64,000 bases of DNA. Origin: Rhodanobacter sp. Soil772. GTDB lineage: Bacteria; Pseudomonadota; Gammaproteobacteria; Xanthomonadales; Rhodanobacteraceae. This document shows positions 26,627 through 40,912 of the stretch, in pieces. Numbering within the stretch: the stretch's first letter is position 1; each line of letters opens with the position of its first letter. The position numbers were made by a program, and so were the translations under genes. Location of the stretch: positions 1,016,803 through 1,080,802 of the forward strand of contig NZ_LMSK01000001.1 in NCBI RefSeq assembly GCF_001428385.1, written 5' to 3'. Under the pieces are notes generated by a model. That model saw only the letters and a list, made by a program, of their open reading frames with translations. It did not search any database and was not told the DNA's origin.

Positions 26627-27550
26627 TCAATCCGCCGCGCGCGGCACCAGCATGTGCTTGGCGATATGCCCGTGCAGGCGGCCCAGGCCACGCGCCAGGT
26701 GCAGGGTGGCGAACAGCAGCACGATGCCGATCACGCACATCGCGATCGCGTCGCCCCAACCTGGCGCATGCGTACCGAAGCCCCAGTCCACGACGACCTG
26801 GTGGTTCACGTACAGTCCGGGCAACCAGTCGTTGCGGAACAGCATCGCCAGCGGCGCGCCGATGAAGGCCACCGACACGCTGAGCAAAGTCACGGCAAGC
26901 GTGAAGTACACGATGCCCAGCGGCAGCATCAGCCACATGTAGCAAAGAGTGGTCCAAGTGTGCACGTCGGTGAACATGCTGCCGATGCGCTTCATCAGGC
27001 TCATGCCCTGGGTCGGGTACACCGGCCGGCGCGGCATGCGCATGCCGAGCATCGCCTCCACGATGCGTCCTTCCACCAGCGACAACACGCGCACGCTGCC
27101 GAAGAACAGCACGATGAACGGCAGGCCGATGATCAGCACCGACAACCCCGCCGACAGCGACAACCCGGTCACCGCCCAGGTGAAGTAGAAGATGCCGGTG
27201 GCCAGCGACAGCAGCATGTAGAACAGCGCGCCATAGGTGCGCGAATCGGCGGCGACGCCGAAGAAGCGCCCGACCAGCGAACGACGTTTCGGCGGCGGCG
27301 GTGGACGCAGCGCGCGCTGGATCTTGATCTCCTGGTCGCGGTAGATCTCGGCCACCTCGTCCGGCGCGCCGTAGCTGCCGACGACGTGTTCCAGCATCTC
27401 CGCTTCACCGCGGCCGGGTTGCTCGGCCAGTTCAGCGCGCAAGTGTTCCTCCGCGTCGTACAGCGCGTCCTGGATCAGGGCCGGGTCGGCACCGCGCAGC
27501 GCGGCACGCAGTTGCTCAAGGTATTCGACGATGGTGCGTGGCGCGTTCAT
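26627..27550 (-). CDS. HAAS / putative sensor-domain membrane protein
   Basis: This 307-residue protein has an N-terminal HAAS-type helical domain (about 1-75, with YLEQLRAALRG and VVGSYGAPDEVAEIY) followed by a multi-span sensor domain. Two pairs of long hydrophobic helices are visible (LFYMLLSLATGIFYFTWAV, LIIGLPFIVLFFGSV, LCYMWLMLPLGIVYFTLAV and AMCVIGIVLLFATLHLA). HAAS proteins are typically encoded next to PadR regulators, as here. The ATG overlaps the PadR stop (TAATG), so the two are co-translated. The signal it senses is unknown. Confidence 0.82.
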   Translation of the reverse strand: MNAPRTIVEYLEQLRAALRGADPALIQDALYDAEEHLRAELAEQPGRGEAEMLEHVVGSYGAPDEVAEIYRDQEIKIQRALRPPPPPKRRSLVGRFFGVAADSRTYGALFYMLLSLATGIFYFTWAVTGLSLSAGLSVLIIGLPFIVLFFGSVRVLSLVEGRIVEAMLGMRMPRRPVYPTQGMSLMKRIGSMFTDVHTWTTLCYMWLMLPLGIVYFTLAVTLLSVSVAFIGAPLAMLFRNDWLPGLYVNHQVVVDWGFGTHAPGWGDAIAMCVIGIVLLFATLHLARGLGRLHGHIAKHMLVPRAAD

Positions 27551-27921
27551 TACACCCCTCCTTGCAAGACGTTATCGACGGAATCGCGGGTGGCGTTCCA
27601 GGCGGCGATCCATTCGCGCAATACCTCGCGCCCCGGTTTGGTGATGCGGTAATAGCGGCGCGGCGGCCCGCTGACGGATGGCTCGACCTCGCTGGCGAGC
27701 AGGCTGGCGCCCTCCAGGTTGCGCAGCACCGGATACAACGCGCTCTGCTTGCCGGCCAGCACACCCTCGCCCACTTCTTCCAGCCGCTTGGCGATCTGGT
27801 AGCCGTACATCGGCTGGCGCGACTGCCCCAGCACCGCCAGCAGCACCAGCGACACGGTACCGCTGGAAAGCTCCTTCTGGAACTTCTTCAACTGGCTGAC
27901 GCTGTCGTCCACTTTGCTCAC
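27550..27921 (-). CDS. PadR family transcriptional regulator
   Basis: This 123-residue protein has the PadR winged helix: VLLAVLGQSRQPMYGYQIAK, then the recognition region GKQSALYPVLRNLEGASLL and the wing PPRRYYRITKPGREVLREW. It lacks a long C-terminal dimer helix, as in the short PadR subfamily. The chosen start is the GTG at 27921 (VSKVDDSVSQLKKFQ); the open frame continues to 28008 without similarity. It precedes and overlaps the HAAS/sensor gene and probably represses the pair through the inverted repeat just upstream. Confidence 0.88.
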   Translation of the reverse strand: MSKVDDSVSQLKKFQKELSSGTVSLVLLAVLGQSRQPMYGYQIAKRLEEVGEGVLAGKQSALYPVLRNLEGASLLASEVEPSVSGPPRRYYRITKPGREVLREWIAAWNATRDSVDNVLQGGV

Positions 27922-27925
27922 CTGC

Positions 27926-27940
27926 ACTACCGCTTGTAGT
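27926..27940. promoter_or_regulatory. Candidate PadR operator
   Basis: ACTACCGCTTGTAGT is an inverted repeat with perfect 5-bp arms, 4 bases upstream of the padR start. Two GTGAAC copies follow within 20 bases. Binding by PadR is inferred from position only. Confidence 0.4.
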
Positions 27941-28270
27941 TGAGTGAACCATAGTGTGAACTTGATACTAGTGCATGGGCCTGAAGTAATGCCTTCGTCA
28001 GGCAGCACCCGTGGCTCATTCTCGCGTCAAGCTGATGACGCAGCAGGAATGACTGGCAAAGACCCGGACCATTCTCATAGACCCAAGTCCACCAAGAAGA
28101 CTGCGGACGACGCGCGCATCACCGGCGCTCCATCCGTGGTGACACAGACTGCTGCCAGTTTCACGGACATCAACTTAGGTTTGATGATGAAGCCGGCAGC
28201 AGTCCAGTGTCCGGATGAGCTGCGCAGATCGGCTTGGAGCCGCTCACTGTTGGCTGTCTAGGCGAGCAAC

Positions 28271-28366: not shown

Positions 28367-31300
28367 ATGCGTAGTCGTTGGCGAGGGATCTGCCTGTTTT
28401 TTGTCGTGTGTGTTTTTTACAACGTCTCGGCGCACGCGCAATCGACCCCCGAGGCGGAATACAAGCAACTGATCCGGGTGAATGAAGACATTCAGCCACT
28501 GGGCGAGCACCCATTCGGCGAGAACATCAGTCTTTACGACGGCACCCTATCCTTTACCCAGACGGACATCAGCTTAGCGGGCACTGGCCCGCTGCTGCAG
28601 CTGGTCCGTCGGTTCGATGCTGAGGGTGATCGACCCAGCGGGCCATCGGGCGACCTCGTCTTTGGCGACTGGCACCTTGCGCTTCCCCACCTGGAAACCC
28701 TGACAGCGGGCATTCCTCCATCGGCGAGCGACCCTAACGGCACGCCGATGTGGAACTACAACGCGTATACCAATCTGCCGCAAAAGATCTACGGCTGGCA
28801 GATCGACAACTCCACGGCATCGGGCATCGATCTCAATGCACGGTGCAGCCACTTCGACGTGCCTCCCACGTTCGTCAGGCAACTGGGTGATCCCGCGCTT
28901 TCGCCGTGGGATCCCGAGGACTGGTGGAAGGGCTATCACCTCGTGATCCCTGGCGAATCAGGCCAGGACATGCTTTCCAACGTCGATGCCTCGACGAAAA
29001 GCAGCTATCCGGTGGTCACCAAGAGCCATTGGCGATTCAGCTGCCTTCCGACCACGTCGAATGGCCAACCCGGCGAGGCTTTCCTGGGTCAGGCACCCGA
29101 CGGCACGTTGTATTGGTTCGATGAGTTGGTCTATCGCGGCGCACCGGGTATGACACGTCCACTCTATTACAGCGGGGCGAGCGTGGAGTCGCACTCTTCC
29201 GGCATGGTGGCTTTTGCGAACCGGTCCGTCGAAACGCTCATCAGCGTGTTGTCCGGTTCGACCATGGCGCATGCCGTAACAACTTCCGACGGCATCTCGC
29301 GGAGCTTGGGCCTGTTACTGGTCACCAAGGTCCAGGACCGATTTGGCAACACGCTCAACTACAGCTACGACACCAACGGATATCTCACGGGCATCACGGC
29401 GAGCGATGGTCGCGCGCTCAGCGTGACCTACGTGCCGAATACCCATCTGATCCAGAGCGTGACTTTGCAGCCATTGTCGGGTGCAGCCCGAACCTGGACT
29501 TATGCCTATAGTTCCTGGAGCGACGGCACCTCTCTCAATGCCGTCACCCTGCCCGATGGCACCCAATGGCGTTACAACCTGACGGGCTTCGATGCGGCGA
29601 CCTTGTCTTCTGCCAATAGCTCCAGTTGCATCGCGCTGGCTGTCCCCGGCAACCTCGGTCCGACGACGGGCACGATCACCCACCCCTCGGGGTTGACGGG
29701 AACCTTCACGGTGATGCCGCTCAAGCACGGCCGCTCGTATGTTACGCGAGGATGCGTGGGGATGCAGAACAACGATCCGAGTACAGCGGGCAGCTACGCG
29801 CTGGTTCCCGACGCGTGGTACAGCTTGACGGCCACCCAGCTGACTACATCGGGCGCCGGTATCCCGAGCCAGACCTGGTCCTACAACTACTCGCCCGCCA
29901 ACGACAGTTGGGCCGACTGCACGGGCAGCTGCCCCACGACGATCTGGAGCGATGTCGTGGCGCCGGATGGCAGCACCGTGCGGCATATTTTCAGCAATCG
30001 GTTTGGCATGACCGAGAGCCAGTTGCTGCGAACGGAGTACTACGCCGGAGCCGCGGGCTCGTCGACCTTGCTGCGCTCAGAAGACGACAGTTACGCCCCA
30101 CCAACGACTGCGCCGCTGCCGGCGATTGCGGGCGTCAATCTTCAGAGCCTCCTCAACGCGGACCAGACGACCAAGTACTCGCCGCTCAACCAGCGCGTCA
30201 TCACCCAGGATGGCGACACCTACACCTGGCAGGCGGAGGCGTTCGACCAGTACGCGCAGGTGACCCAGACCAAGCGCTTCAATTCGATCGCCGGGCAAAA
30301 CCCGATCGAGGAGGCCACCACGTATCTCAACGATACCAGCCTGTGGGCACTGGGCCTGCCGCAACAGGTGACCAACCTCGCCACCGGCGAGGTCGAGAGC
30401 CTCAACACCTACAGCACCAGCAACGACACACTGCAGTCGCGCGCGCGCTTCGGCCAGACGCTGATGAACTACACGTTCAACAGCGCCGGCCAGCTGGCGA
30501 GCTTCACCGACAGCAACAGCCACACCACCAGCCTGAGCAACTACAAGCGCGGCATCCCGCAGACGATCGGCTATCCGGACGGCATCAGCGAGACCCTGGT
30601 CGTCGACGACTTCGGCCAGATCAGTGCCATCACCGATCAGGCGGGGCACACCACCAGCTACGGCTACGACAGCGTCGGCCGCATGACCGGCATCACCTAT
30701 CCCGGCGGGGACGAGGAGGCCTGGCTGCCCAAGACCTTCAGCTACGACTTCGTCACCAGCGACGAGCGTGGCGTCCCCGCCAACCACTGGCGCCGCACCA
30801 CGACCACCGGCAGTGCGGTGGGGGTGACTTACTTCGATGCGATGCTGCGCCCGGTGCTGACCGACAGCGACATCGGTGCCAATGTCCAGGTCAGCACACT
30901 GACCACCTACGATGCCAAAGGGCAGAAGACCTTCAGCGCCTATCCGAGTGCGACGGCACTGACCTTCACGCAGACGCCCGCCGCGGCCGGCATCAAAGGC
31001 GTGGCCACTACCTATGACGCGCTGGAGCGGGTGGTTCAGGTCCAGCAGGACTCCGAACTGGGGGTGCTGACCAGCAGCACCGCGTACCTGTCCGGTGCCC
31101 GGCAACAGGTGACCGACCCCAAGGGCAACGTCACCACCACCAGCTACCAGGTGTTCGACTCGCCCAGTGACGACGCACCGATCCAGGTGCAGGCCCCCAC
31201 CGGCATTACTCAGAGCATTGCCCGCGACCTGTACGGCAACCCGCTCTCGATCACCCAGTCCGGTCTGTACAGCACCGAGAGCGACAGCGTCACCAAGACG

Positions 31301-34300
31301 CTGACCTACGACAGCTACCACCGCCTGTGCCGCACCACCGAGCCGGAGAGCGGCAGCGAGGTGATGGCCTACGACGCGGCCAACAACCTGGCGTGGAGTG
31401 CGCAAGGCCTGGCCATTACCGGCACCGGCTGTGGCCAAGAGCAAGTGGCTGCCGGGGCCCAGACCACGCGCACCTACGATGCGATGAACCGGGTGAAGAC
31501 GCTCTTGCCGCCGGCGGGCACGCAGAGCACCACCTACGGCTACGATCCGGTCGGTCGGCTCACCAGCGCCGTATCCGGCATCAGCACGTGGAGCGGCACC
31601 TACAACTTCCGCGGCATGCTCACCGGCGAGAGCCTGCAGTTGACCGGGCAGAATGCCTGGGGCCTCGGCTACGCCCACGACGCCTACGGTAGCCTCACCC
31701 TGATCCATTACCCGGATGGCGAGAACGTCAGCTATGCCCCGGATGCGCTGGGTCGCCCGACCCAAGCAGGCAGCTATGCCACCGGCATCGGCTACTTCCC
31801 GAACGGACAGATCGCGCAGTTTGCCTACGCCAATGGCACCAGCTATGTCGCTGAGCAGAACGCGCGCCAGCTGCTGCGCAATTTCAGCTACGGCGTGAGC
31901 AGCACGATGCAGTTGAGCGAGGATCTGAGCTACGACGCCAACGGCAACATCACCGCGGTGGCCGACCTGACCGGCGGTCCGCGCAACAAGTCGTTCGGCT
32001 ATGACGCTCTGAATCGGTTGGCCAGCGCCAATGCGGCCGGCCTGTGGGGCACCCAAGCCTATACCTACGACGCACTCAACAACCTGCGCACGCTGCAGAC
32101 CGGCAGCCAGGTTTCCACCTACCACTACGACACCACCAACAAGCTGACCAGCATCAGCAGTGGCGCCACCACGCTGACCAGCTACCTCTATGACACCCGC
32201 GGCAACGTCACCGGCAAGAACGCGACCACGCTGGTGTTCGACCAGAAGAACCAGCTGACCCGGATCGCCGGTGGCGGCACGTACGCCTATGACGCGTCGG
32301 GGCGTCGGGTATCGAAGACGGTGGGTGGTGCCACCACCTACTATTTCTACAACCAGGCCGGGCAGCTGATGTACCAATGGGCACCCGGCAGTGCGCTGTC
32401 CACCAGCTTCGTCTACCTCGGCAGCAAGCTGATCGGTGACAACGAGACGATCATCCTGAGCGCGTCGGCCTCGGTGGGCTTCGACGCCAACCCGAACAAC
32501 GGCAGCTACACGGTGAGCTGGGGCGCCGTGCCGGGGGCGACCAGCTACCTGCTGCAGGAAAGCGCCAACGGCGGCGGCTGGACCACGGCGTACAACGGCG
32601 CGGCCACCAGCGCGGTGCTGAGCGGCCGGGCTGGCGGCAGCTACGTCTACCGGGTCGAAGGGTGCATCGGCGCTACCTGCGGCGGCTGGACCACCTCGGC
32701 CACGCTGGGCGTGCGTCCGGCCCTGCCGACGGTCACCGTGCCCACGGGCACCATCAACGGCACCTATACGGTGAGCTGGACGACGCCGGCCAGCGCCACC
32801 GGCTACGACGTGCAGGAGCGGGTGAACGGCGGCGGCTGGACCACGATCGCCAGCAACACCGCAGCGACCGCGATCAGCCGCCCCGGGACCAGCAGCGGCA
32901 GCTACACCTACCAGGTCTCGGCCAACAACGCCTACGGCAGCCGCGGCTGGGCCGCCTCCGGGGCGGTGACGGTGGACACCACCTACGGGGTGGTGCCGAC
33001 GGCGCCGGCCAGCCTGAGCGTGCCGGCCAGCAGCAGCACCGGCAGTGCCACGCTGAGCTGGAGCGCGTCCAGCCTCACCACGAGCTATACCCTCCAGCAG
33101 AGCAGCAACGGCGGCACCAGCTGGAGCGCGGCGTACACCGGCAGCGCCCCCAGTGCGGCCCTGACCGGGCTGGCCGATGGCAGCTACGTCTACCGCGTGC
33201 AAGCCTGCAACACCTACGGCTGCAGTGCCTGGACCGCCGGCAGCGCCACACTGGTGGTGACCCACCCACCGGCGACGGCACCCGGCCTTAGCGTGCCGGC
33301 CAGCAGCGCCAGCGGCAGCTACACGGTGAGCTGGGGCGGCGTGAGCGGAGCGACCAGCTACACCCTGCAAGAGCAGGTCAACGGCGGCGCCTGGACCACG
33401 GTGCAGGCCAACAGCCTGACCAGTTGGAGTACCAGCGGCCACGGCAATGGCACCTACGGCTACCGAGTACAGGCCTGCAACGTGGGCGGTTGCGGGCCGT
33501 GGAGCACCACCGGCAGCACCACGGTGCTGCTGCCGCCGGCTGCGCCGGCCAGCATCAGCGTGCCGGCCACCAGCAGCGGCAGCATCGCGGTGAGCTGGGT
33601 GGCCAGCGCCACGGCGACCAGCTATACGCTGCAGCAGCGTCTCGGAACGGGCAGCTGGGGCACTGTCTACACCGGCGCGGCCACCAACAGCACACGCACG
33701 GTCACCACCAGCGGCAGCTACACCTACCAGGTGCAGGCGTGCAACGCGGGCGGCTGCAGTGCATACAAGGCCAGCAGCACAGTGGCGGTGACGATTCCGC
33801 CGGCCAGCGCGCCGAGCCTGAGCGTGCCGTCGAGCAGCAGCAACGGCAGCTACACGGTGAGCTGGGGCGCGGTCACCGCGGCGACCAGCTACACCCTGCA
33901 GGAGCAGGTCAACGGCGGCGCCTGGGCCACGGTGCAGGCCAACGGTAATACGAGCTGGAGCATCAGCGGCAAGAGCAACGGCACCTACGGCTACCATGCG
34001 CAGGCGTGCAATGCGGGCGGCTGCGGGCCATGGAGTGGCGTCGGCAGCGTCAGTGTCGCCCTCGTGCCGGCACCACCCGCCAATCCAACTGTCACCGATA
34101 CTGTCGCGGGCAAGATCGAGACGTATGGCGGTAGCTGGAGCGCAGTCAGCAATGCAACACGTTATGAAGTGTTGCGCGTGCAGACGTCGTCAACCATCTA
34201 CAGCGGAACAGGCTTGTCCACTCCATTGGAAAGTGGCTCTGTTGGTTTCGAGCCGCAATACAGCTACAACCTCAGGGCCTGTAACGACGCAGGGTGTTCG

Positions 34301-34321
34301 GCGTGGGAGCGCTTGTTTTGA
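28367..34321 (+). CDS. Secreted RHS-repeat protein with seven C-terminal fibronectin-III-like modules, lacking RHS core
   Basis: This 1984-residue protein starts with a signal peptide (MRSRWRGICLFFVVCVFYNV, cleavage near AHAQ); the ATG at 28367 has AAGGGGAAGGAA before it. An RHS N-terminal region (EHPFGENISLYDGTLSFTQTD) follows. From about residue 320 to 1356 come many YD/RHS repeats such as YSYDTNGYLTGITASDGR, YGYDSVGRMTGITYPGG and YAYDASGRRVSKTVGG. RHS repeats form a large hollow beta shell around a toxin. The repeats stop at YLGSKLIGDNE (1350-1360), the strand that normally leads into the RHS-associated core. Instead, seven fibronectin-III-like units of 85-90 residues run to the end (about 1362-1984). 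The missing core is encoded by the next gene. No T6SS or VgrG gene is nearby, so Sec export is implied. Confidence 0.9.
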   Translation: MRSRWRGICLFFVVCVFYNVSAHAQSTPEAEYKQLIRVNEDIQPLGEHPFGENISLYDGTLSFTQTDISLAGTGPLLQLVRRFDAEGDRPSGPSGDLVFGDWHLALPHLETLTAGIPPSASDPNGTPMWNYNAYTNLPQKIYGWQIDNSTASGIDLNARCSHFDVPPTFVRQLGDPALSPWDPEDWWKGYHLVIPGESGQDMLSNVDASTKSSYPVVTKSHWRFSCLPTTSNGQPGEAFLGQAPDGTLYWFDELVYRGAPGMTRPLYYSGASVESHSSGMVAFANRSVETLISVLSGSTMAHAVTTSDGISRSLGLLLVTKVQDRFGNTLNYSYDTNGYLTGITASDGRALSVTYVPNTHLIQSVTLQPLSGAARTWTYAYSSWSDGTSLNAVTLPDGTQWRYNLTGFDAATLSSANSSSCIALAVPGNLGPTTGTITHPSGLTGTFTVMPLKHGRSYVTRGCVGMQNNDPSTAGSYALVPDAWYSLTATQLTTSGAGIPSQTWSYNYSPANDSWADCTGSCPTTIWSDVVAPDGSTVRHIFSNRFGMTESQLLRTEYYAGAAGSSTLLRSEDDSYAPPTTAPLPAIAGVNLQSLLNADQTTKYSPLNQRVITQDGDTYTWQAEAFDQYAQVTQTKRFNSIAGQNPIEEATTYLNDTSLWALGLPQQVTNLATGEVESLNTYSTSNDTLQSRARFGQTLMNYTFNSAGQLASFTDSNSHTTSLSNYKRGIPQTIGYPDGISETLVVDDFGQISAITDQAGHTTSYGYDSVGRMTGITYPGGDEEAWLPKTFSYDFVTSDERGVPANHWRRTTTTGSAVGVTYFDAMLRPVLTDSDIGANVQVSTLTTYDAKGQKTFSAYPSATALTFTQTPAAAGIKGVATTYDALERVVQVQQDSELGVLTSSTAYLSGARQQVTDPKGNVTTTSYQVFDSPSDDAPIQVQAPTGITQSIARDLYGNPLSITQSGLYSTESDSVTKTLTYDSYHRLCRTTEPESGSEVMAYDAANNLAWSAQGLAITGTGCGQEQVAAGAQTTRTYDAMNRVKTLLPPAGTQSTTYGYDPVGRLTSAVSGISTWSGTYNFRGMLTGESLQLTGQNAWGLGYAHDAYGSLTLIHYPDGENVSYAPDALGRPTQAGSYATGIGYFPNGQIAQFAYANGTSYVAEQNARQLLRNFSYGVSSTMQLSEDLSYDANGNITAVADLTGGPRNKSFGYDALNRLASANAAGLWGTQAYTYDALNNLRTLQTGSQVSTYHYDTTNKLTSISSGATTLTSYLYDTRGNVTGKNATTLVFDQKNQLTRIAGGGTYAYDASGRRVSKTVGGATTYYFYNQAGQLMYQWAPGSALSTSFVYLGSKLIGDNETIILSASASVGFDANPNNGSYTVSWGAVPGATSYLLQESANGGGWTTAYNGAATSAVLSGRAGGSYVYRVEGCIGATCGGWTTSATLGVRPALPTVTVPTGTINGTYTVSWTTPASATGYDVQERVNGGGWTTIASNTAATAISRPGTSSGSYTYQVSANNAYGSRGWAASGAVTVDTTYGVVPTAPASLSVPASSSTGSATLSWSASSLTTSYTLQQSSNGGTSWSAAYTGSAPSAALTGLADGSYVYRVQACNTYGCSAWTAGSATLVVTHPPATAPGLSVPASSASGSYTVSWGGVSGATSYTLQEQVNGGAWTTVQANSLTSWSTSGHGNGTYGYRVQACNVGGCGPWSTTGSTTVLLPPAAPASISVPATSSGSIAVSWVASATATSYTLQQRLGTGSWGTVYTGAATNSTRTVTTSGSYTYQVQACNAGGCSAYKASSTVAVTIPPASAPSLSVPSSSSNGSYTVSWGAVTAATSYTLQEQVNGGAWATVQANGNTSWSISGKSNGTYGYHAQACNAGGCGPWSGVGSVSVALVPAPPANPTVTDTVAGKIETYGGSWSAVSNATRYEVLRVQTSSTIYSGTGLSTPLESGSVGFEPQYSYNLRACNDAGCSAWERLF
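33290..33505 (+). repeat. Duplicated FN3 module DNA, copy A
   Basis: These 216 bases encode most of FN3-like unit 4 and are nearly identical in long stretches to 33821-34036 (unit 6), including a shared run encoding SYTLQEQVNGGAW. The two copies are 531 bases apart with exactly equal length, which points to a recent two-module duplication. Confidence 0.7.
33821..34036 (+). repeat. Duplicated FN3 module DNA, copy B
   Basis: Second copy of the 216-base block at 33290-33505, encoding FN3-like unit 6. Differences cluster in the loop after VQAN and at the start of the unit. Confidence 0.7.
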
Positions 34322-34511
34322 AGCCGGCACCGCATCCCGTGACACGGGCGCCACAGTGGTTCAGTAGGCTTGCCTCCAGAAATGAGTCGTCAGGCGGCAG
34401 GTTGCTCCCCTGGTTCTGGCTATGCAGGCGAGAGTGCCGGCGAGCACCAGGGGAGCATGCCCTTTACACGCGTGGCGCCATGCGGCAACCATCGATCAGG
34501 GATCGTCGATC

Positions 34512-35420
34512 ATGAACCTCATGAAGTATGCCGTCGTGTTGCTGCTCGCCTGTGTAACGACCGTCGCGCGGGCTGGCACGCACCATTACTACTACACCGA
34601 CCCGCAGGGCACGGTGCTGGCTAAGGCTGACGCCAGCGGCGCCATCGTCGCCACGTACGACTACGCGCCGTACGGCATGGCAGTGGCGAGCATGAGTCCG
34701 GCGCCGAATGGGCCGGGGTATACCGGGCACGTGAACGATCCGGATACCGGGTTGGTGTATATGCAGGCGCGGTATTACGACCCTGCGGTGGGGCGGTTTT
34801 TGAGTTCAGATCCGGTAAAACCGACGCCAGGAAATGCATTCAACTTTAATCCATACACATATGCAAACAATAACCCAATTATAAATTTTGATCCATCGGG
34901 CCGTGAGACATGTGACATAGAGTGCAAAAGACAGCGACAAGAACAAGACCGGCGTAGACGTAATGCCCCATACACTGGAGGAGGAATACTGGTAGGAAGG
35001 GCTACGGCGACCGGGCGTGCAACAGACGCAATAGGCTCTGCTCTGTTTGGCACCCGTTTCAATCTAATAAAACGTCCAGAGAACCCAACAAAAATACCTG
35101 ACAAATTGGCGCATGAATTGTTCATGACTGGTGCGGCAGGCGAAATAGTGGCTCTCGCTCCCTACGCAGGGCTTGTCGGTGGGTCTGTTGCTCCAGTTGC
35201 CGTAGATGCGGGAGGCGTGGTCGCTGGGGTAACGGGTGACGTGATGCTACGCTATGGAGGGCGAGCAGCTATGATTGGATGTCTATCTGTTTCCTGCCAT
35301 GGGGAAGATTTACCTGATCAATATGTCGCAGATCGCAAGATACTTCAGGAAATGTATGAAGAAGCAAAAATTGTTGGCTACCAAGCCTTTAAACAGGTGT
35401 TTCAAGACGGTAAAAATTGA
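34512..35420 (+). CDS. Separately secreted RHS-associated core with variable C-terminal (toxin-like) domain
   Basis: This 302-residue protein begins with its own signal peptide (MNLMKYAVVLLLACVTTVAR, cleavage near ARAG). At once it enters the RHS core: HHYYYTDPQGTVLAKADASG, then YDYAPYG, GYTGHVNDPDTGLVYMQARY, YDPAVGRFLSSDP and the end mark NPIINFDPSG (121-130). This is exactly the part missing from the upstream RHS protein. After residue 130 the sequence is variable: a Cys/Arg-rich segment (CDIECKRQRQEQDRRRR) and a hydrophobic Gly/Ala-rich stretch (about 205-245). I match it to no known toxin. DNA composition drops sharply in GC from about 34810, as in exchangeable RHS toxin tips. The start codon 4 or 1 (Met4) cannot be separated. 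Confidence 0.85.
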   Translation: MNLMKYAVVLLLACVTTVARAGTHHYYYTDPQGTVLAKADASGAIVATYDYAPYGMAVASMSPAPNGPGYTGHVNDPDTGLVYMQARYYDPAVGRFLSSDPVKPTPGNAFNFNPYTYANNNPIINFDPSGRETCDIECKRQRQEQDRRRRNAPYTGGGILVGRATATGRATDAIGSALFGTRFNLIKRPENPTKIPDKLAHELFMTGAAGEIVALAPYAGLVGGSVAPVAVDAGGVVAGVTGDVMLRYGGRAAMIGCLSVSCHGEDLPDQYVADRKILQEMYEEAKIVGYQAFKQVFQDGKN

Positions 35421-35425
35421 AGAAT

Positions 35426-36004
35426 ATGGAAAGAGAATCTCTTAGAGAACTTAAGAAAGAAGCGGATGCTGCGTTCAATAATAGGGATTTTGAACAAGCA
35501 TTTACTTTGTCGGAACGGCTAGCCAAAGAAAATATACCTTCGGCCATATTCACTTGTGGTCTAATCATGGAGAAGGGCTGGCTGCATGGCAATAAAGATT
35601 TTGACCGTGCCTTATATTTTTATCGCGACTTAGTACTAAAATTTAACGACGAAGAAGGTTATCTTGGTTGCGTTCGAATTTTTTTAGCTAGACGCGATCT
35701 ATCAAACCGGGATAAGGCGATTGAATACTGCCTTGGGGCAACCAAGGGGCGCTTGAAGCATCTCGCATTTCTTCTTCTTGGAAATGTTTATGAAGAATTA
35801 TATATTCCGCCTGAATATAAATTAGCAAGAAGCGCGTATCTGAAGTCGTTTTTTTCAGGTTCTGCTTGGGGTTTGCGTAAACATGCAATGTCGATGATGA
35901 AATCAAACAACATTATTGGCGGAGTTTTTATGCATATCATTGCAACCGTAGTGTCGCCTTTATTTGCAATCTTCGGTGGTTTAAGAACTACACGAAAGGG
36001 ATGA
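35426..36004 (+). CDS. Putative immunity protein with TPR/Sel1-like repeats and C-terminal membrane helix
   Basis: This 192-residue protein is encoded in DNA much richer in A and T than the neighbourhood and starts 5 bases after the stop of the RHS core/toxin gene. Helical hairpins such as DFDRALYFYRDLVLKFN and EYKLARSAYLKSFFSGSAW resemble Sel1/TPR repeats. Residues about 165-185 (GGVFMHIIATVVSPLFAIFG) form a hydrophobic helix. Position, composition and small size are those of an RHS immunity gene; the role is inferred. A TTG (35417) overlapping the previous stop is an alternative start. Nothing similar is duplicated in the window. Confidence 0.72.
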   Translation: MERESLRELKKEADAAFNNRDFEQAFTLSERLAKENIPSAIFTCGLIMEKGWLHGNKDFDRALYFYRDLVLKFNDEEGYLGCVRIFLARRDLSNRDKAIEYCLGATKGRLKHLAFLLLGNVYEELYIPPEYKLARSAYLKSFFSGSAWGLRKHAMSMMKSNNIIGGVFMHIIATVVSPLFAIFGGLRTTRKG

Positions 36005-36412: not shown

Positions 36413-37663
36413 TCACTCTGTGCGAATCGCGACCACGGGCGGCACTTTGGCGGCATAGCGTGCCGGTCCCCATACGGCCAGCTGACCGAGCAGCCACAAC
36501 AGCAGCGCACCCAGTAGTGGCACGTAAAGCGGCATGCGCGGCAATTCATAGACATGCATCAGGCCGAGATTCGCAAAGAACGCGAGCAACGCTCCGAGTA
36601 CGATGCCGCCGCTGACGATCAGGAAATTCTCGGTATGGAAGTAGCGCAGGATATCGCCGGTGGTTGCGCCGAGCGAACGGCGGATACCGATCTGTTTGCG
36701 TCGCTGGCTGACCCAGAAACTGCTCAACCCGACAATGCCGCCTGCCGTAGCCAACAGCAGCAATCCACAGACGATGCTCAGCAGTGTCGCCACGCTGTGA
36801 TCGGCTGCGTAAGCGCGCTCACGTACCTGGGCCATGGTAACGACGCCTTCTTTCGGATCGATGATGCGTACGCCGCCGCGTTCTTGCAGCGCTTTCAGTG
36901 CGGCACTGATCACCGGCTTCATCGCGGTGGAGTCAGTACGCACCAGATACACAACACCCGCTGGATCGAGATAATGCGTCGGGACCAGCACGGTATAGCC
37001 ATCTAACTGCCCCCCATTTCTGAATGGCCCCTGCAGGCTGGCGAGGATACCGATGATGGCGGCAGGCCCATCCGGCAGGTATACCGTCTTGCCCAGGGCC
37101 GAACCATCGGGAAACAGCTTGTCGGCAAGACTGCGGGTGACGATGATGCCTGAAGGAGACATCTTGTCGTTGGGGCCGATGGCGGTAATTTCATCGGGAC
37201 GAAAATTGCGCCCAGCGACTAGCGATATGCCCAGCGTATCGATCGCATGCTCGTCGGAAGCAAAGAACGTGACCAGTTGCCCGCTTGTCTTCTGGTCCGG
37301 TTTGAGCTTCAGTCTCAGGATGATGTCATCTTTGAATCCTCCCAGTGGAAACCCCTGGCTGGAAAACGCGTCACGCACGCCCGCGACATGACGCAAGGCG
37401 TCCAGGTCGGCGCGAATATTCGCATTCATCTGGGTTGCATTCTGACCCAGCTTCCACACGTTGCGGATAACGAAGAGATGGGCTTCGTCCGTGCTGGTAG
37501 GGCGAGACAGATGGACGATGCGCGTGGCCACGATAAACAGTGCGTTGGATGCCACCGCCAGCGTCAGCGCTACCTGCAGCACGATGAGCGCGGTGGCCAC
37601 CTTGTGTCGCCCCAGAGCTGCAAGGATCGGGCGCAGCTGCACGAATGTCCTGGTGAGTGCCAT
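36413..37663 (-). CDS. ABC transporter permease, MacB/FtsX type
   Basis: This 416-residue protein has the MacB_PCD/FtsX layout: an N-terminal transmembrane helix (KVATALIVLQVALTLAVASN), a periplasmic domain of about 220 residues, and three C-terminal helices. The cytoplasmic loop SQRRKQIGIRRSLGATTGDI is the usual ATPase-contact segment. The ATG at 37663 has GAGG 7 bases upstream. It follows the second permease gene by 11 bases and is probably co-transcribed with it. Such pairs often export peptides or lipophilic compounds, or act as mechanotransmission units. No ATP-binding subunit gene is adjacent. Confidence 0.85.
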   Translation of the reverse strand: MALTRTFVQLRPILAALGRHKVATALIVLQVALTLAVASNALFIVATRIVHLSRPTSTDEAHLFVIRNVWKLGQNATQMNANIRADLDALRHVAGVRDAFSSQGFPLGGFKDDIILRLKLKPDQKTSGQLVTFFASDEHAIDTLGISLVAGRNFRPDEITAIGPNDKMSPSGIIVTRSLADKLFPDGSALGKTVYLPDGPAAIIGILASLQGPFRNGGQLDGYTVLVPTHYLDPAGVVYLVRTDSTAMKPVISAALKALQERGGVRIIDPKEGVVTMAQVRERAYAADHSVATLLSIVCGLLLLATAGGIVGLSSFWVSQRRKQIGIRRSLGATTGDILRYFHTENFLIVSGGIVLGALLAFFANLGLMHVYELPRMPLYVPLLGALLLWLLGQLAVWGPARYAAKVPPVVAIRTE

Positions 37664-37674
37664 GACGGGAAACC

Positions 37675-38994
37675 TCAATTGATCTTGATTTGCCAGGCGG
37701 GCTGGGTTTGCGCCGCCCGCCAGGTCGGGTACAGGGCGGAAGCCACCGTGGCAGCGATGGCGAGCAGCACGGTCAGTGCGATCAACGAGCTATCGGCATG
37801 CACGAGCCGTGCAATGTTCGGCTCGAAAAGTCCCCCGGCTCCCCATACGCCTAGCAGCGTCAGTGCCACGCCGAGCAGGCCGCCGACACACCCCATGGTG
37901 GCCGCCTCGATCAGGAACTGCCGGTAGATGGCCGCTCGCGAAGCACCCAAGGCGCGGCGTATGCCGATTTCCGGTGCTCGCCGCATAAATCGTGCAAGCA
38001 TGAGCCCGACGACGTTGACCAGGACAATCAGCAGAAAGCTGGCAGAAACCAGCATGGACAAGCTTGATGCCCTGGGCGTGACCTGCAAGTACGCCAGCCA
38101 GACCGTCAGATTGCGCAGGCGTATGTTTGGCGGCCACGAGAAGCGCCCGAGCCGTTGCTGCTCCGCGGCATAGTGGCGCAAGTATTCGCGGTAGCGATCC
38201 GCGTCGGCAGGCGTCGCCAGATCCACCCAGGCAACGATCCGGTCACATTCGCTGTGCAGATAGGCACCCCAGTTGGACTCATCAAAAGCCTGCGAATCCG
38301 TCGGGCACAATGAGAATGTGCTGTCCTTCTTCATATCGGTCGCGCGGGTGAACGGGATGTAGATATCTCCCACGTCATCGAATGGACGCACGTCATCGCC
38401 AACGTCAAAGAAGCGGGGTCTCGGGTTCCAGTCCTCCAGCACACCGCCGATCCGGAAGAGTTGCCCATCCAGCCGGATCTCCTGCCCGACACTGTTTTGT
38501 CCGCCAAACAGCGCTTCGTTCAAGTGCCGACTGATGACCGCCACGGTGGCGTGCTGTGCATCGTCATTCGCCGTCCACCCGCTGCCAAAGCGAAAAGGCA
38601 CGTCGAACATCGAGAAGAAATCGGCGGTTACCGCGTCGCCTGTTTCGGTCATGGCAGGAACCGATGGATTATCCGATTCCACTTGCCACTTCGTGGGATA
38701 GAGCAGTGTTTGCCGGCTTGCCTTGTGTGCCTGCCACAGCACCATCGCATCAATGTAACTCAGCGTGTCACCTGGTTCGCCATACCAGTTATAGGACGGG
38801 CCAAGGTTGTCGATCAGCGGCACGTAAAGCCGGGAAGACTTGCCGGGAAGCGGATCGCTCGTGGTCGCCCGGAACACGGCATAAGACACCATGCAGGCCG
38901 ACACCCCGAAAGCCAGCAGCACGATCACCAGCGCGGTCAAAGCCTTGCTTCGTCCACTGCTTCGCAACGCCAACGCAACGTAATACCCCCACAT
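37675..38994 (-). CDS. ABC transporter permease, MacB/FtsX type
   Basis: This 439-residue permease has an N-terminal helix (KALTALVIVLLAFGVSACMV), a large periplasmic domain and three C-terminal helices including SFLLIVLVNVVGLMLARFM. The coupling loop is RRAPEIGIRRALGASRAAIY. The ATG at 38994 follows AGGGGGCGTT. The periplasmic part contains conserved-looking LNEALFGGQNSVGQEIRLDG. It is the first gene of a two-permease unit; upstream on the other strand is a peptidyl-prolyl isomerase gene, so an ATPase subunit must come from elsewhere. Confidence 0.84.
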   Translation of the reverse strand: MWGYYVALALRSSGRSKALTALVIVLLAFGVSACMVSYAVFRATTSDPLPGKSSRLYVPLIDNLGPSYNWYGEPGDTLSYIDAMVLWQAHKASRQTLLYPTKWQVESDNPSVPAMTETGDAVTADFFSMFDVPFRFGSGWTANDDAQHATVAVISRHLNEALFGGQNSVGQEIRLDGQLFRIGGVLEDWNPRPRFFDVGDDVRPFDDVGDIYIPFTRATDMKKDSTFSLCPTDSQAFDESNWGAYLHSECDRIVAWVDLATPADADRYREYLRHYAAEQQRLGRFSWPPNIRLRNLTVWLAYLQVTPRASSLSMLVSASFLLIVLVNVVGLMLARFMRRAPEIGIRRALGASRAAIYRQFLIEAATMGCVGGLLGVALTLLGVWGAGGLFEPNIARLVHADSSLIALTVLLAIAATVASALYPTWRAAQTQPAWQIKIN

Positions 38995-39129
38995 AACGCC
39001 CCCTGTGACGTCGTTCGACAATCGGCAGATGCCTAGTCTGCCGATCCCAAGAATTGCACACTTTGATGTCATGCCCATGCGCCTCCTGCTAAGTTGCGTC
39101 TTTGCCAGTCCGTTGCACAGGGGAACTCC

Positions 39130-40065
39130 ATGCTTCGCCGCCATCTCATCGCCGCACTCGCGCTGACCAGCGCCCTGCTGACACTTCCCTCCATCGCCGC
39201 CGAGCAGGACAAGCCCACGCCGACGGCGAAGGAAATCCTGGCCAAATCCACACCGGTCGAGTGGCGCACACCGGACCCGCAGAACCTGTTGTTCATGCAG
39301 CTGCCGACCGGGCGCGTGGTTATCGAATTGGCGCCGGACTTCACCCCGCTGCACGCGGCAAACATCCGCACCCTGGTGCGTGCGCATTACTTCGACGGGC
39401 TGGCGATCATCCGCGTGCAGGATAATTTCGTCACCCAGTGGGGCGACCCGAACGACGACGAGAACGGCGACAAGAGCAAGCTCCGTTCGTTGGGCAAGGC
39501 CAGCAAGACGCTGCCGCCGGAGTTCACCCGTGCGATCGACCCGAAGCTGGCGTGGACGGCGCTGCCGGATGGCGACGTGTACGCGCCCGAGGTCGGTTTC
39601 AGCGAAGGCTTTCCGGTGGGGCGCGACCCGGCCAGCGGGCAGGAGTGGGTGGCGCACTGCTACGGCACGGTCGGCGTGGCGCGCGACGTGGCGCCAGAGA
39701 CCGGCAGCGGCAGCTCGCTGTACGCGGTGATTGGTCAGGCGCGCCGGCTGGACCACAACCTCGCCGTGGCCGGCCGCGTGCTGGAGGGCATGCCGCTGCT
39801 GTCCGGGCTGCCGCGCGGCCCGGAGCCGATGGGCTTCTACGCCGATCCTGCTCAGCGCGTCACCATCGAATCGGTGCGACTGGCGGCCGACATGCCGGCG
39901 AAAGACCGCCCGGCGATCCAGGTGCTGCGCACCGACAGCGCCAGCTTCGCCGCGCTGGTCGAGGCGAAACGCAACGGCCGCAACGCGTTCTATCCCAAGC
40001 CGGCCGGCAAGGTCGACCTGTGCGGCATCGACGTGCCGGTACGCGAGGCGAAGCCGGCGCATTGA
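39130..40065 (+). CDS. Periplasmic cyclophilin-type peptidyl-prolyl isomerase
   Basis: This 311-residue protein has a signal peptide (LIAALALTSALLTLPSIAA) and a cyclophilin-type domain, which isomerises Xaa-Pro bonds. Visible family features are LPTGRVVIELAPDFTPLHAA, then FDGLAIIRVQDNFVTQWGDP, and GTVGVARDVAPETGSGSSLY. The latter block replaces the usual GTVSMAR, with an insertion before it that is common in xanthomonad homologues. The ATG at 39130 follows AGGGGAACTCC. It is divergent from the permease pair. Confidence 0.87.
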   Translation: MLRRHLIAALALTSALLTLPSIAAEQDKPTPTAKEILAKSTPVEWRTPDPQNLLFMQLPTGRVVIELAPDFTPLHAANIRTLVRAHYFDGLAIIRVQDNFVTQWGDPNDDENGDKSKLRSLGKASKTLPPEFTRAIDPKLAWTALPDGDVYAPEVGFSEGFPVGRDPASGQEWVAHCYGTVGVARDVAPETGSGSSLYAVIGQARRLDHNLAVAGRVLEGMPLLSGLPRGPEPMGFYADPAQRVTIESVRLAADMPAKDRPAIQVLRTDSASFAALVEAKRNGRNAFYPKPAGKVDLCGIDVPVREAKPAH

Positions 40066-40143
40066 TGCCACGACGCCACGGCGAACATTTTGTTCACCCG
40101 CGTCGGTTACCTTGCCCTTCTGGCCGACTGCGGAAACCGTGAC

Positions 40144-40737
40144 ATGCCGTTGAACGACACCCTGGCCTTCCTGCGCGCCTGGCTGCGCGACCCGCGCGGC
40201 ATCGGCGCGGTGACGCCGTCCGGCGCTGCGCTGGCGCGGCTGATGACCAGCCACGTCAGTGCGTTGGGCGGGCCGGTGATCGAACTGGGGCCCGGCACCG
40301 GCGCGTTGACGCGCGCCCTGCTGGCGCGCGGCGTGCCGCCGCATCGGCTGGCCCTGATCGAGGCCGATGTGCACTTCGCCGATGCGCTGAGCCGACGCTA
40401 TCCGGAGGCAACCATCCTGCGCATGGACGCCGCCCGGCTCGGCGATACCGAGTCGCTGTTCGGCGACGAACGCGCCTGTGCCGTGGTCAGCGGCCTGCCG
40501 CTGCTGTCGATGCCGCCGGCCCAGGTCGCCGCGATCGTGCAGGGCGTGTTCGAGCGCCAGTTGCACAGTGACGGCATGTTCTATCAGTTCACCTACGGCC
40601 TGCGCTGCCCGCTGCCGCCGGCCCTGCTTGCGCGGCTGAACCTGCAGGCCCGCCGGGTCGGCAACGCCCTGCTCAACCTGCCGCCCGCGGCGGTCTACTG
40701 CATCAGCCGGCGACCGGACCACCAGGTCGCGGCTTGA
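40144..40737 (+). CDS. PmtA-like phospholipid N-methyltransferase
   Basis: This 197-residue protein resembles the small PmtA/rRNA-adenine-dimethylase-like methyltransferases. It begins AFLRAWLRDPRGIGAVTPSG, typical of PmtA-type enzymes, and has the SAM motif VIELGPGTGALTRALL at about residues 45-60, then LIEADVHFADALSRRYP. PmtA methylates phosphatidylethanolamine towards phosphatidylcholine; psd, which makes phosphatidylethanolamine, is elsewhere in the window. The specific substrate is inferred from family resemblance only. Confidence 0.78.
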   Translation: MPLNDTLAFLRAWLRDPRGIGAVTPSGAALARLMTSHVSALGGPVIELGPGTGALTRALLARGVPPHRLALIEADVHFADALSRRYPEATILRMDAARLGDTESLFGDERACAVVSGLPLLSMPPAQVAAIVQGVFERQLHSDGMFYQFTYGLRCPLPPALLARLNLQARRVGNALLNLPPAAVYCISRRPDHQVAA

Positions 40738-40912
40738 TCCGCGGCCGATAGCCGAGGCGCGTCGAACAGGGTTCGCCTGTCGACTGCGCGTGAACGAGGT
40801 CTGAAAGCACCAGGCCATCACCACAAAACCTTTGCATCTCTCCAGCTATCACTTGGGCCGGTGCCCCAGCGCGTCCGGATGACGTGCGGGCCAACCGCCG
40901 CAGGAGTGACGG

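What the first reader, a model, noticed from the sequence alone, without database searches (positions are those of the whole stretch)
28367..35420. RHS protein split into two separately secreted halves
The 1984-residue RHS protein stops its repeats at YLGSKLI, the strand that normally precedes the core, and ends instead in FN3-like modules. The next gene starts with its own signal peptide and resumes at YYYTDPQGTVLAKADASG, runs through the RHS core end NPIINFDPSG and carries the variable tip. Both have clear signal peptides and ribosome-side starts, so this is not a simple frameshift. I infer that the halves are exported by Sec and reassemble outside the cytoplasm, with the FN3 array serving as stalk or cell-binding part. 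I recall similar two-gene arrangements in Xanthomonadaceae but no description of the mechanism.
Basis: partly seen in the sequence, partly recalled or inferred. Interest (0 to 1): 0.82.

Follow-up and report, generated by a model that had tools for sequence, protein, structure and literature searches.

The report
Two-gene Rhs toxin shell, separately exported
A soil bacterium appears to make a shell-like Rhs toxin as two separately exported proteins, a big shell with a tail and a small lid carrying the payload; related bacteria keep the same split, which suggests that one shell might be loaded with different payloads.

Summary
Gene 1 (28367-34321): signal peptide, head, YD repeats to YLGSKLI, then FN3-fold modules. 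Gene 2 (34512-35420): its own signal peptide, RHS core with the aspartyl-autoprotease residues, and a 172-aa variable tip. A presumed immunity gene follows (35417-36004). No frameshift: among 91 core ORFs in the 78 closest named loci, 88 stand alone, 78 of 88 with a rule-called signal peptide, 34 within 300 nt of a repeat+FN3 scaffold, 15 of these overlapping it. Core and scaffold co-occur (57, 55, both 47 of 197 family genomes). The split recurs in a second family (9 loci with FN3-like motifs upstream). Continuous homologues in the genus join the halves exactly at the gap, show no FN3 array, nest among split scaffolds and share two tip families with split genes. Best reading: gene 2 is a trans-acting lid-plus-toxin subunit of a Sec-exported Rhs shell, like TcB/TcC but cut elsewhere. 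Docking is inferred: the model of a fused homologue left the core unresolved and no complex could be folded. Some cores lack a close scaffold. New variant of a known kind.

The parts
28367..28438 (+). signal peptide of scaffold gene 1 (MRSRWRGICLFFVVCVFYNVSAHA|Q)
   Evidence: read from the sequence; cleavage site by eye
28439..32413 (+). scaffold head and YD/RHS repeats (shell)
   Evidence: Pfam RHS_repeat 1.5e-28; the model of residues 785-1984 matches Rhs shells, teneurins and TcdB2-TccC3
32414..32434 (+). YLGSKLI, where the shell chain stops and continuous homologues run on into the core
32435..34321 (+). FN3-fold array (about seven modules, counted by eye) and stop codon of gene 1
34512..34574 (+). 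signal peptide of gene 2 (MNLMKYAVVLLLACVTTVARA|G)
   Evidence: rule applied to relatives
34578..34901 (+). RHS-associated core (presumed lid and autoprotease); Arg87, Asp100, Asp127 of gene 2
   Evidence: NCBIfam TIGR03696 7.5e-23; these residues are R 88, D 87, D 87 of 88 standalone cores, the one miss being cut off by the end of its locus
34902..35420 (+). variable C-terminal tip, 172 aa, presumed toxin of unknown kind
   Evidence: no Pfam or NCBIfam hit at E<=0.01, no PADLOC hit at E<=1; besides the own genome one weak match (E 9e-4) in 299 order genomes; tips of relatives 8-20% alike to it
35417..36004 (+). presumed immunity gene, overlapping the stop of gene 2 (TTG 35417; or ATG at 35426)
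   Evidence: position and low GC; a 64% homologue lies about 1.5 kb from a core gene in a Dyella

Best explanation
This is a polymorphic Rhs toxin whose shell is made from two separately exported chains. Gene 1 makes a Sec-exported, open-ended YD-repeat shell whose chain leaves at the last repeat strand and ends in an external FN3 tail. Gene 2 makes a Sec-exported small subunit: after signal-peptide cleavage its N-terminus is the first strand of the RHS core, so it can add to the open edge of the shell, close it, place its toxic tip inside and cut the tip free with its own aspartyl protease. The gene behind protects the producer. Shown by sequence: two genes with export-type leaders, the exact split point, conserved protease residues, recurrence of the pair, co-occurrence, tip variability. 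Inferred: docking, closure, autocleavage in trans, toxicity, immunity, and export across the outer membrane (type II secretion is present in the genus; T6SS is absent from this genome).
For: Exact cut: continuous KLIARHKG-STVTYLLTD against split KLIARN-[FN3]-stop plus signal peptide..HAG-TVTYVYTD. 88 of 91 core ORFs stand alone; 34 have an adjacent scaffold, 15 of these overlap it, 8 by 4 nt. Co-occurrence: Fisher p 4e-27 over 197 family genomes; in 45 genus genomes 20 have both, 2 core only, 0 scaffold only (lists copied by hand, shared ancestry not corrected). Continuous forms nested among split ones and sharing tips with them: L098/L115 65% over 101 aa, L108/L118 67% over 208 aa. R, D, D conserved in 88, 87 and 87 of 88 standalone and 3 of 3 continuous cores; the R-to-D spacing of 13 equals that of BiTLP (PMC13018210, results part 1 of 3). 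The core profile matches the RHS core segment of 43 solved sequences, among them TccC2, TccC3, T6SS Rhs proteins, Tse5 and teneurins. Core divergence tracks the last 140 residues of the neighbouring shell more than its head (r 0.34 against 0.04; partial Mantel 25 of 2000 permutations). Cores within one genome are more alike than between genomes (0.88 against 0.775; 0 of 5000 shuffles). No VipB in this genome; GspD matches in 45 of 45 genus genomes, 43 over the cut-off.
Against: No complex was modelled; in the continuous-homologue model the core has pLDDT of about 28-65, mostly 30-48, so docking is unseen. 36 of 88 standalone cores have no scaffold upstream in the stretch fetched, some because a contig ends there. 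Of 19 genomes with such solo cores (22 of 35 solo loci given), 4 have no close scaffold, two of them MAGs and two isolates. In the genus G003 and G016 have a core and no scaffold; in the family 10 of 57 core genomes lack a scaffold and 8 of 55 scaffold genomes lack a core at my thresholds. 14 of the 20 scaffold carriers of the genus do have VipB (9 of the other 25), so a T6SS link in those is not excluded. The Mantel and within-genome signals could come from linkage, duplication or gene conversion. The tip has no known toxin fold and no activity is shown.
Confidence: 0.6

Rival explanations
1. The gene 2 product is an independent small secreted toxin; the core is only a self-cleaving leader, and gene 1 is a separate FN3-tailed adhesin that merely lies next door.
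For: Solo cores without a scaffold upstream in the stretch fetched (36 of 88); four of 19 genomes with no close scaffold; the core keeps the whole protease motif.
Against: Co-occurrence, overlap of start and stop in 15 of 34 adjacent pairs, continuous homologues joined at the same point, shared tip families. In solved structures the matching segment belongs to a larger shell, so a lone copy would lack its fold partner (inference).
Confidence: 0.2
2. A decaying or rearranged Rhs: an FN3 array came between last repeat and core, and the detached core-tip is a displaced cassette that serves mainly as a recombination donor, like silent orphan Rhs tips.
For: Truncated core-tip fragments lie near some loci (L095 16151, L096 3571); tip and immunity gene are low in GC, 39-55% in 300-base bins against 58-74% over the scaffold.
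Against: Purifying selection on ten cores; recurrent signal peptides and starts, whereas most orphan cdiA-CT genes are reported to lack translation initiation signals (PMC3150448, passages); persistence through several genera and a second family.
Confidence: 0.15
3. Sequencing or assembly artefact, or a lone frameshift of one continuous gene.
For: None beyond the existence of continuous homologues.
Against: Same arrangement in many independent assemblies; each half has its own signal peptide.
Confidence: 0.01

Closest known systems
TcB-TcC of ABC (Tc) toxin complexes
   Same: One RHS shell built from two chains, the second carrying core and hypervariable tip; Yersinia entomophaga YenB can package C subunits from distinct loci, one an orphan (PMC11067744, introduction and section 2.2 read).
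   Different: TcC brings several hundred residues before the core (core at 591-689 of the YenC2 chain and 558-663 of the TccC2 chain); gene 2 brings only its signal peptide. Here both chains have signal peptides and the first ends in FN3 modules; no TcB-type Pfam domain on gene 1 at E<=0.01.
T6SS Rhs effectors (RhsA, Tse5, RhsP)
   Same: YD shell, core aspartyl protease, variable tip; among the best solved matches of the shell models.
   Different: Single chain with VgrG/PAAR delivery (established knowledge); here Sec-type leaders, and no VipB in the genome.
Bacterial teneurin-like proteins and Sec-exported RHS polymorphic toxins
   Same: Exported YD shells with toxin tips; Gram-negative ones carry predicted signal sequences (PMC13018210, results part 1 of 3; PMC3482391, passages).
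   Different: One chain, adhesion modules at the N-terminus; here the added modules follow the shell and the core is another gene.
Orphan rhs-CT / cdiA-CT cassettes
   Same: Extra tip-immunity modules near the main gene (PMC3150448, passages).
   Different: Most standalone genes here keep a start codon, a signal peptide and the whole core, so they could be made and exported as they stand.

Membership tests
Rhs/YD polymorphic toxin system | YD/RHS repeats plus RHS-associated core | tested here: met
   RHS_repeat on gene 1, Rhs_assc_core on gene 2; on two chains
Rhs/YD polymorphic toxin system | conserved Arg-Asp-Asp aspartyl autoprotease in the core | tested here: met
   R 88, D 87, D 87 of 88 standalone cores and 3 of 3 continuous (the earlier 28-core alignment was picked with a motif holding R and the second D, so it is no independent test); cleavage itself not tested
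Rhs/YD polymorphic toxin system | hypervariable C-terminal tip behind a conserved core | tested here: met
   27 cores 58-87% alike to the window, 34 tips 8-20%
Rhs/YD polymorphic toxin system | cognate immunity gene directly behind | tested here: inconclusive
   an ORF of 80 aa or more starts within 50 nt of 72 of 87 core-tip stops, no control run; no activity data
TcB-TcC (ABC toxin) | two chains form one closed RHS shell | not testable with these tools
   only single chains could be folded; core unresolved in the continuous homologue
TcB-TcC (ABC toxin) | second chain carries RHS repeats before the core | tested here: not met
   gene 2 has only 22 residues, its leader, before the core
TcB-TcC (ABC toxin) | SpvB / TcdB-type domains on the first chain | tested here: not met
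   no such Pfam hit at E<=0.01
TcB-TcC (ABC toxin) | TcA translocation pentamer | not tested
   not searched
T6SS Rhs effector | T6SS in the genome and PAAR/VgrG N-terminus | tested here: not met
   no VipB in G000; no PAAR or VgrG Pfam hit on gene 1 at E<=0.01
Teneurin-like protein | FN-plug, NHL and YD-shell on one chain | tested here: not met
   only a sub-threshold TEN_YD-shell hit on gene 2 (16.8 bits, cut-off 50) and none on gene 1

The most novel reading that the evidence does not exclude
A reloadable Rhs weapon: one exported shell with an FN3 tail is closed outside the cytoplasm, in trans, by any of several lid-toxin subunits made from genes scattered over the same genome, so that new payloads are gained by adding a gene and not by recombining the shell gene.
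Probability: 0.35. Interest if true: 0.8.

Novelty: new variant of a known kind. Interest (0 to 1): 0.63.

Why it matters
If true, an Rhs shell can be assembled from two exported chains, and the lid can be exchanged without touching the shell gene. That would turn standalone toxin cassettes found in two families of one order from recombination stock into working ammunition, give a natural split site for studying how Rhs shells close, and point to a Sec-type delivery route for Rhs toxins in Gram-negative bacteria that lack T6SS. I found no description of it: searches of the open-licence library gave none; subscription papers and preprints were not searched.

Tried and rejected
Frameshift or artefact: rejected. 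Lipoprotein export of gene 2 (LLLAC at residues 10-14): considered and set aside by eye, since the relatives printed mostly lack that Cys and keep an A-x-A-like site. T6SS delivery: rejected for this genome only. Fold of a natural continuous homologue to see docking: shell good, core unresolved, so it says nothing about docking. Known toxin family for the window tip: none. Tips of relatives: of 35, Pfam at E<=0.01 matched Peptidase_M15_3 in 3, Tox-REase-7 in 2, Phage_lysozyme, Peptidase_M91 and a weak HH_signal in 1 each; the two Tox-REase-7 tips are L098 and L115, both just under the curated cut-off (24.8 and 23.3 bits, cut-off 25); NCBIfam gave four families, one tip each.

Limits of counts. 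The 78 loci are the 80 best of 448 relatives of a mostly split-type query (26 of 28 rows of A1), so 88 of 91 overstates how often such cores stand alone in general; in the order search many matches lie in long frames. Upstream reading of L022, L024 and L026 was made without orienting those loci and is discarded. In one search, 8 of 30 loci could not be read by my motif; of 22 read, by eye 14 stand alone with a signal-like leader and 8 are continuous. In one search, 27 of the 34 adjacent pairs plus the window passed my filter, and 26 of these 28 were long enough for the Mantel test. The lists were copied by hand (family: core E<=1e-34, scaffold E<=1e-180; genus: core 120 bits, scaffold 600 bits); the scaffold searches do not tell split from continuous proteins. 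In one search the label gap<=30 stands for gaps of up to 60 nt, and gaps depend on the start my rule chose.

Full report
What is there. Gene 1 (28367-34321, + strand) encodes 1984 aa: a signal peptide, a head, YD/RHS repeats to YLGSKLI (residues 1350-1356), then FN3-like modules to the stop. Gene 2 (best start 34512, stop 35418-35420) encodes 302 aa: a signal peptide ending ARA|G, the RHS-associated core THHYYYTD...NPIINFDPSG, and a 172-aa tip. A 195-aa gene (35417-36004) overlaps its stop. Pfam sees RHS repeats on gene 1 and NCBIfam the RHS-associated core on gene 2. The FN3 reading is structural: the model of residues 785-1984 (mean pLDDT 84.3) matches Rhs shells and strings of Ig/FN3 domains. 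GC in 300-base bins falls from 58-74% over the scaffold to 39-55% over tip and immunity gene, as for a payload acquired from elsewhere (inference).

It recurs and is not a frameshift. A pattern scan of the species genomes found 448 relatives of the core; the best 80 gave 78 loci, titled Rhodanobacter, Dyella, Frateuria, Luteibacter, Fulvimonas, Oleiagrimonas, a few unnamed MAGs and one contig titled Eremiobacteraeota. In these, 88 core ORFs stand alone and 3 are continuous; the query was mostly split-type, so this ratio is biased. 78 of the 88 pass a home-made signal-peptide rule that passes 300 of 1700 shuffled leaders and 25 of 416 positions inside tips. Of the ten failures, two have open 5' ends and several others look like signal peptides by eye. 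34 of 88 lie within 300 nt of a repeat+FN3 scaffold, 24 of them within 60 nt, 15 overlapping, 8 by exactly 4 nt; 9 lie beside a partial scaffold, 9 have a repeat-bearing ORF farther upstream, and 36 have none upstream in the stretch fetched. The window's gap of 190 nt is on the long side. Of 40 long scaffold ORFs, 37 have FN3-array hits; the three without are the continuous one (L164), one running off the fetched stretch (L200), and Oleiagrimonas (L206), where FN3 hits lie in a separate ORF. In a second family of the order (f2), 9 standalone cores with a signal-like leader lie behind FN3-like cysteine motifs, among 14 standalone and 8 continuous loci of 22 readable and 30 fetched. I take f2 to be Xanthomonadaceae/Lysobacteraceae; the tool does not say.

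Where the cut lies. Continuous homologues in the same genus (L098/L164, L100, L108, and a broken one in L109) run, as in L108, from YLNGKLIARHKG straight into STVTYLLTD; split ones stop the shell at YLGSKLIARN or similar, add FN3 or other modules, and resume behind a signal peptide at G-TVTYVYTD or G-THHYYYTD. So tail and signal peptide occupy the hinge between last repeat and core, and nothing of the shell is lost. In a tree of 39 shell domains L100 and L108 pair inside a well-supported group of split Rhodanobacter scaffolds, and L164 is sister (support 88/84, not starred) to a group of eight rows, six split plus L100 and L108; all other rows are split and the root is a midpoint. Continuous forms thus look secondary: two fusions, or one fusion and later re-splitting. 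Two tip families occur in both architectures: L098 and L115 (65% over 101 aa, both near Tox-REase-7) and L108 and L118 (67% over 208 aa). This is Rosetta-stone evidence that the two chains do together what one chain does elsewhere.

How it would work. The core profile matches the RHS core segment in 43 solved sequences, among them Tc, T6SS Rhs and teneurin chains. It holds the aspartyl protease: R, D and D are present in 88, 87 and 87 of 88 standalone cores and in 3 of 3 continuous ones, the one miss being cut off by the end of its locus; the Arg-Asp spacing of 13 equals that reported for the Bacillus teneurin-like protein (R2103/D2116; PMC13018210, results part 1 of 3 read). After signal-peptide cleavage gene 2 begins with the first core strand, so it could pair with the open YLGSKLI edge of gene 1, close the shell and cut its tip. 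This step is inferred. The one model that might have shown it, the L164 protein, gave a good shell but an unresolved core. Weak support: core divergence follows the neighbouring last 140 shell residues (r 0.34) and not the head (0.04), partial Mantel 25 of 2000; linkage could cause this.

One shell, several lids. Some scaffolds are followed by two standalone cores (L103; L133, L157, L184 and L204), and solo cores occur away from scaffolds. I gave 22 of the 35 loci with a solo core to a genome search: of their 19 genomes, 15 have a close scaffold (over 800 bits, split and continuous not told apart) and 4 do not, two of these being MAGs. In 45 genus genomes 22 have the core, 20 the scaffold, 20 both; in 197 family genomes 57, 55 and 47 (Fisher p 4e-27; shared ancestry not corrected). 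Cores of one genome, without tips, are 88% alike against 77.5% between genomes (34 cores, 23 within-genome pairs, 0 of 5000 shuffles), as expected if they fit one shell, or if they are recent duplicates. Most orphan cdiA-CT genes are reported to lack translation initiation signals (PMC3150448, passages); most of these keep start, signal peptide and core.

Export and target. The genome lacks the T6SS sheath gene VipB, and so do five other scaffold carriers (G002, G013, G023, G030, G061); but 14 of the 20 scaffold carriers have it, against 9 of the other 25 genus genomes. GspD of type II secretion matches in 45 of 45 genus genomes, 43 over the cut-off. Sec then type II secretion is therefore the likeliest path here, not a shown one. 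Tips of relatives include a lysozyme, M15 and M91 peptidases and REase-type tips, a mix of envelope and cytoplasmic targets by their labels. The window tip has one weak match besides itself. The presumed immunity protein has a 64% homologue about 1.5 kb from a core gene with another tip in Dyella mobilis, on the other strand, as an orphan immunity gene would.

Verdict. It works like TcB-TcC, where C subunits from an orphan locus can load one shell (PMC11067744, introduction and section 2.2 read), yet fails that family's tests on cut point and first-chain domains. No description was found in searches of the open-licence library.

Noticed in passing
L103 10238-16060, L161, L176, L182: In some scaffolds the stretch after YLG.K.IARN is not FN3-like at first but begins with a G-x-IDGV-type stretch (in L103 followed by GWAC), so the tail of the shell may itself be exchangeable.
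   Followed up: no
L109 8440-10497: A gene of FN3 modules that starts at the last shell strand (NFIYLGRKLVADNE) precedes a complete core gene with a signal peptide: a scaffold without its shell.
   Followed up: partly
L173 7795-8379 (-): Orphan homologue (64%) of the window's presumed immunity gene beside a core gene whose tip looks deaminase-like by a recalled motif, in Dyella mobilis.
   Followed up: partly
window 32435-34318: Several FN3 modules carry paired cysteines (ACN..GC), fitting an oxidising, exported environment.
   Followed up: no
genus genomes: VipB (T6SS) is commoner in scaffold carriers (14 of 20) than in the rest of the genus (9 of 25), although the window genome lacks it.
   Followed up: no
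window 26627-28008 (-): PadR-type regulator next to a HAAS/Sensor membrane protein gene, just upstream of gene 1 on the other strand.
   Followed up: no
window 36413-40824 (-): MacB/FtsX-type permease genes apparently in tandem behind the toxin locus; only the first was checked by Pfam.
   Followed up: no
L095 16151-16783, L096 3571-4203: Two truncated core-tip fragments with the same printed start, downstream of one scaffold: classical silent cassettes beside the complete ones.
   Followed up: no
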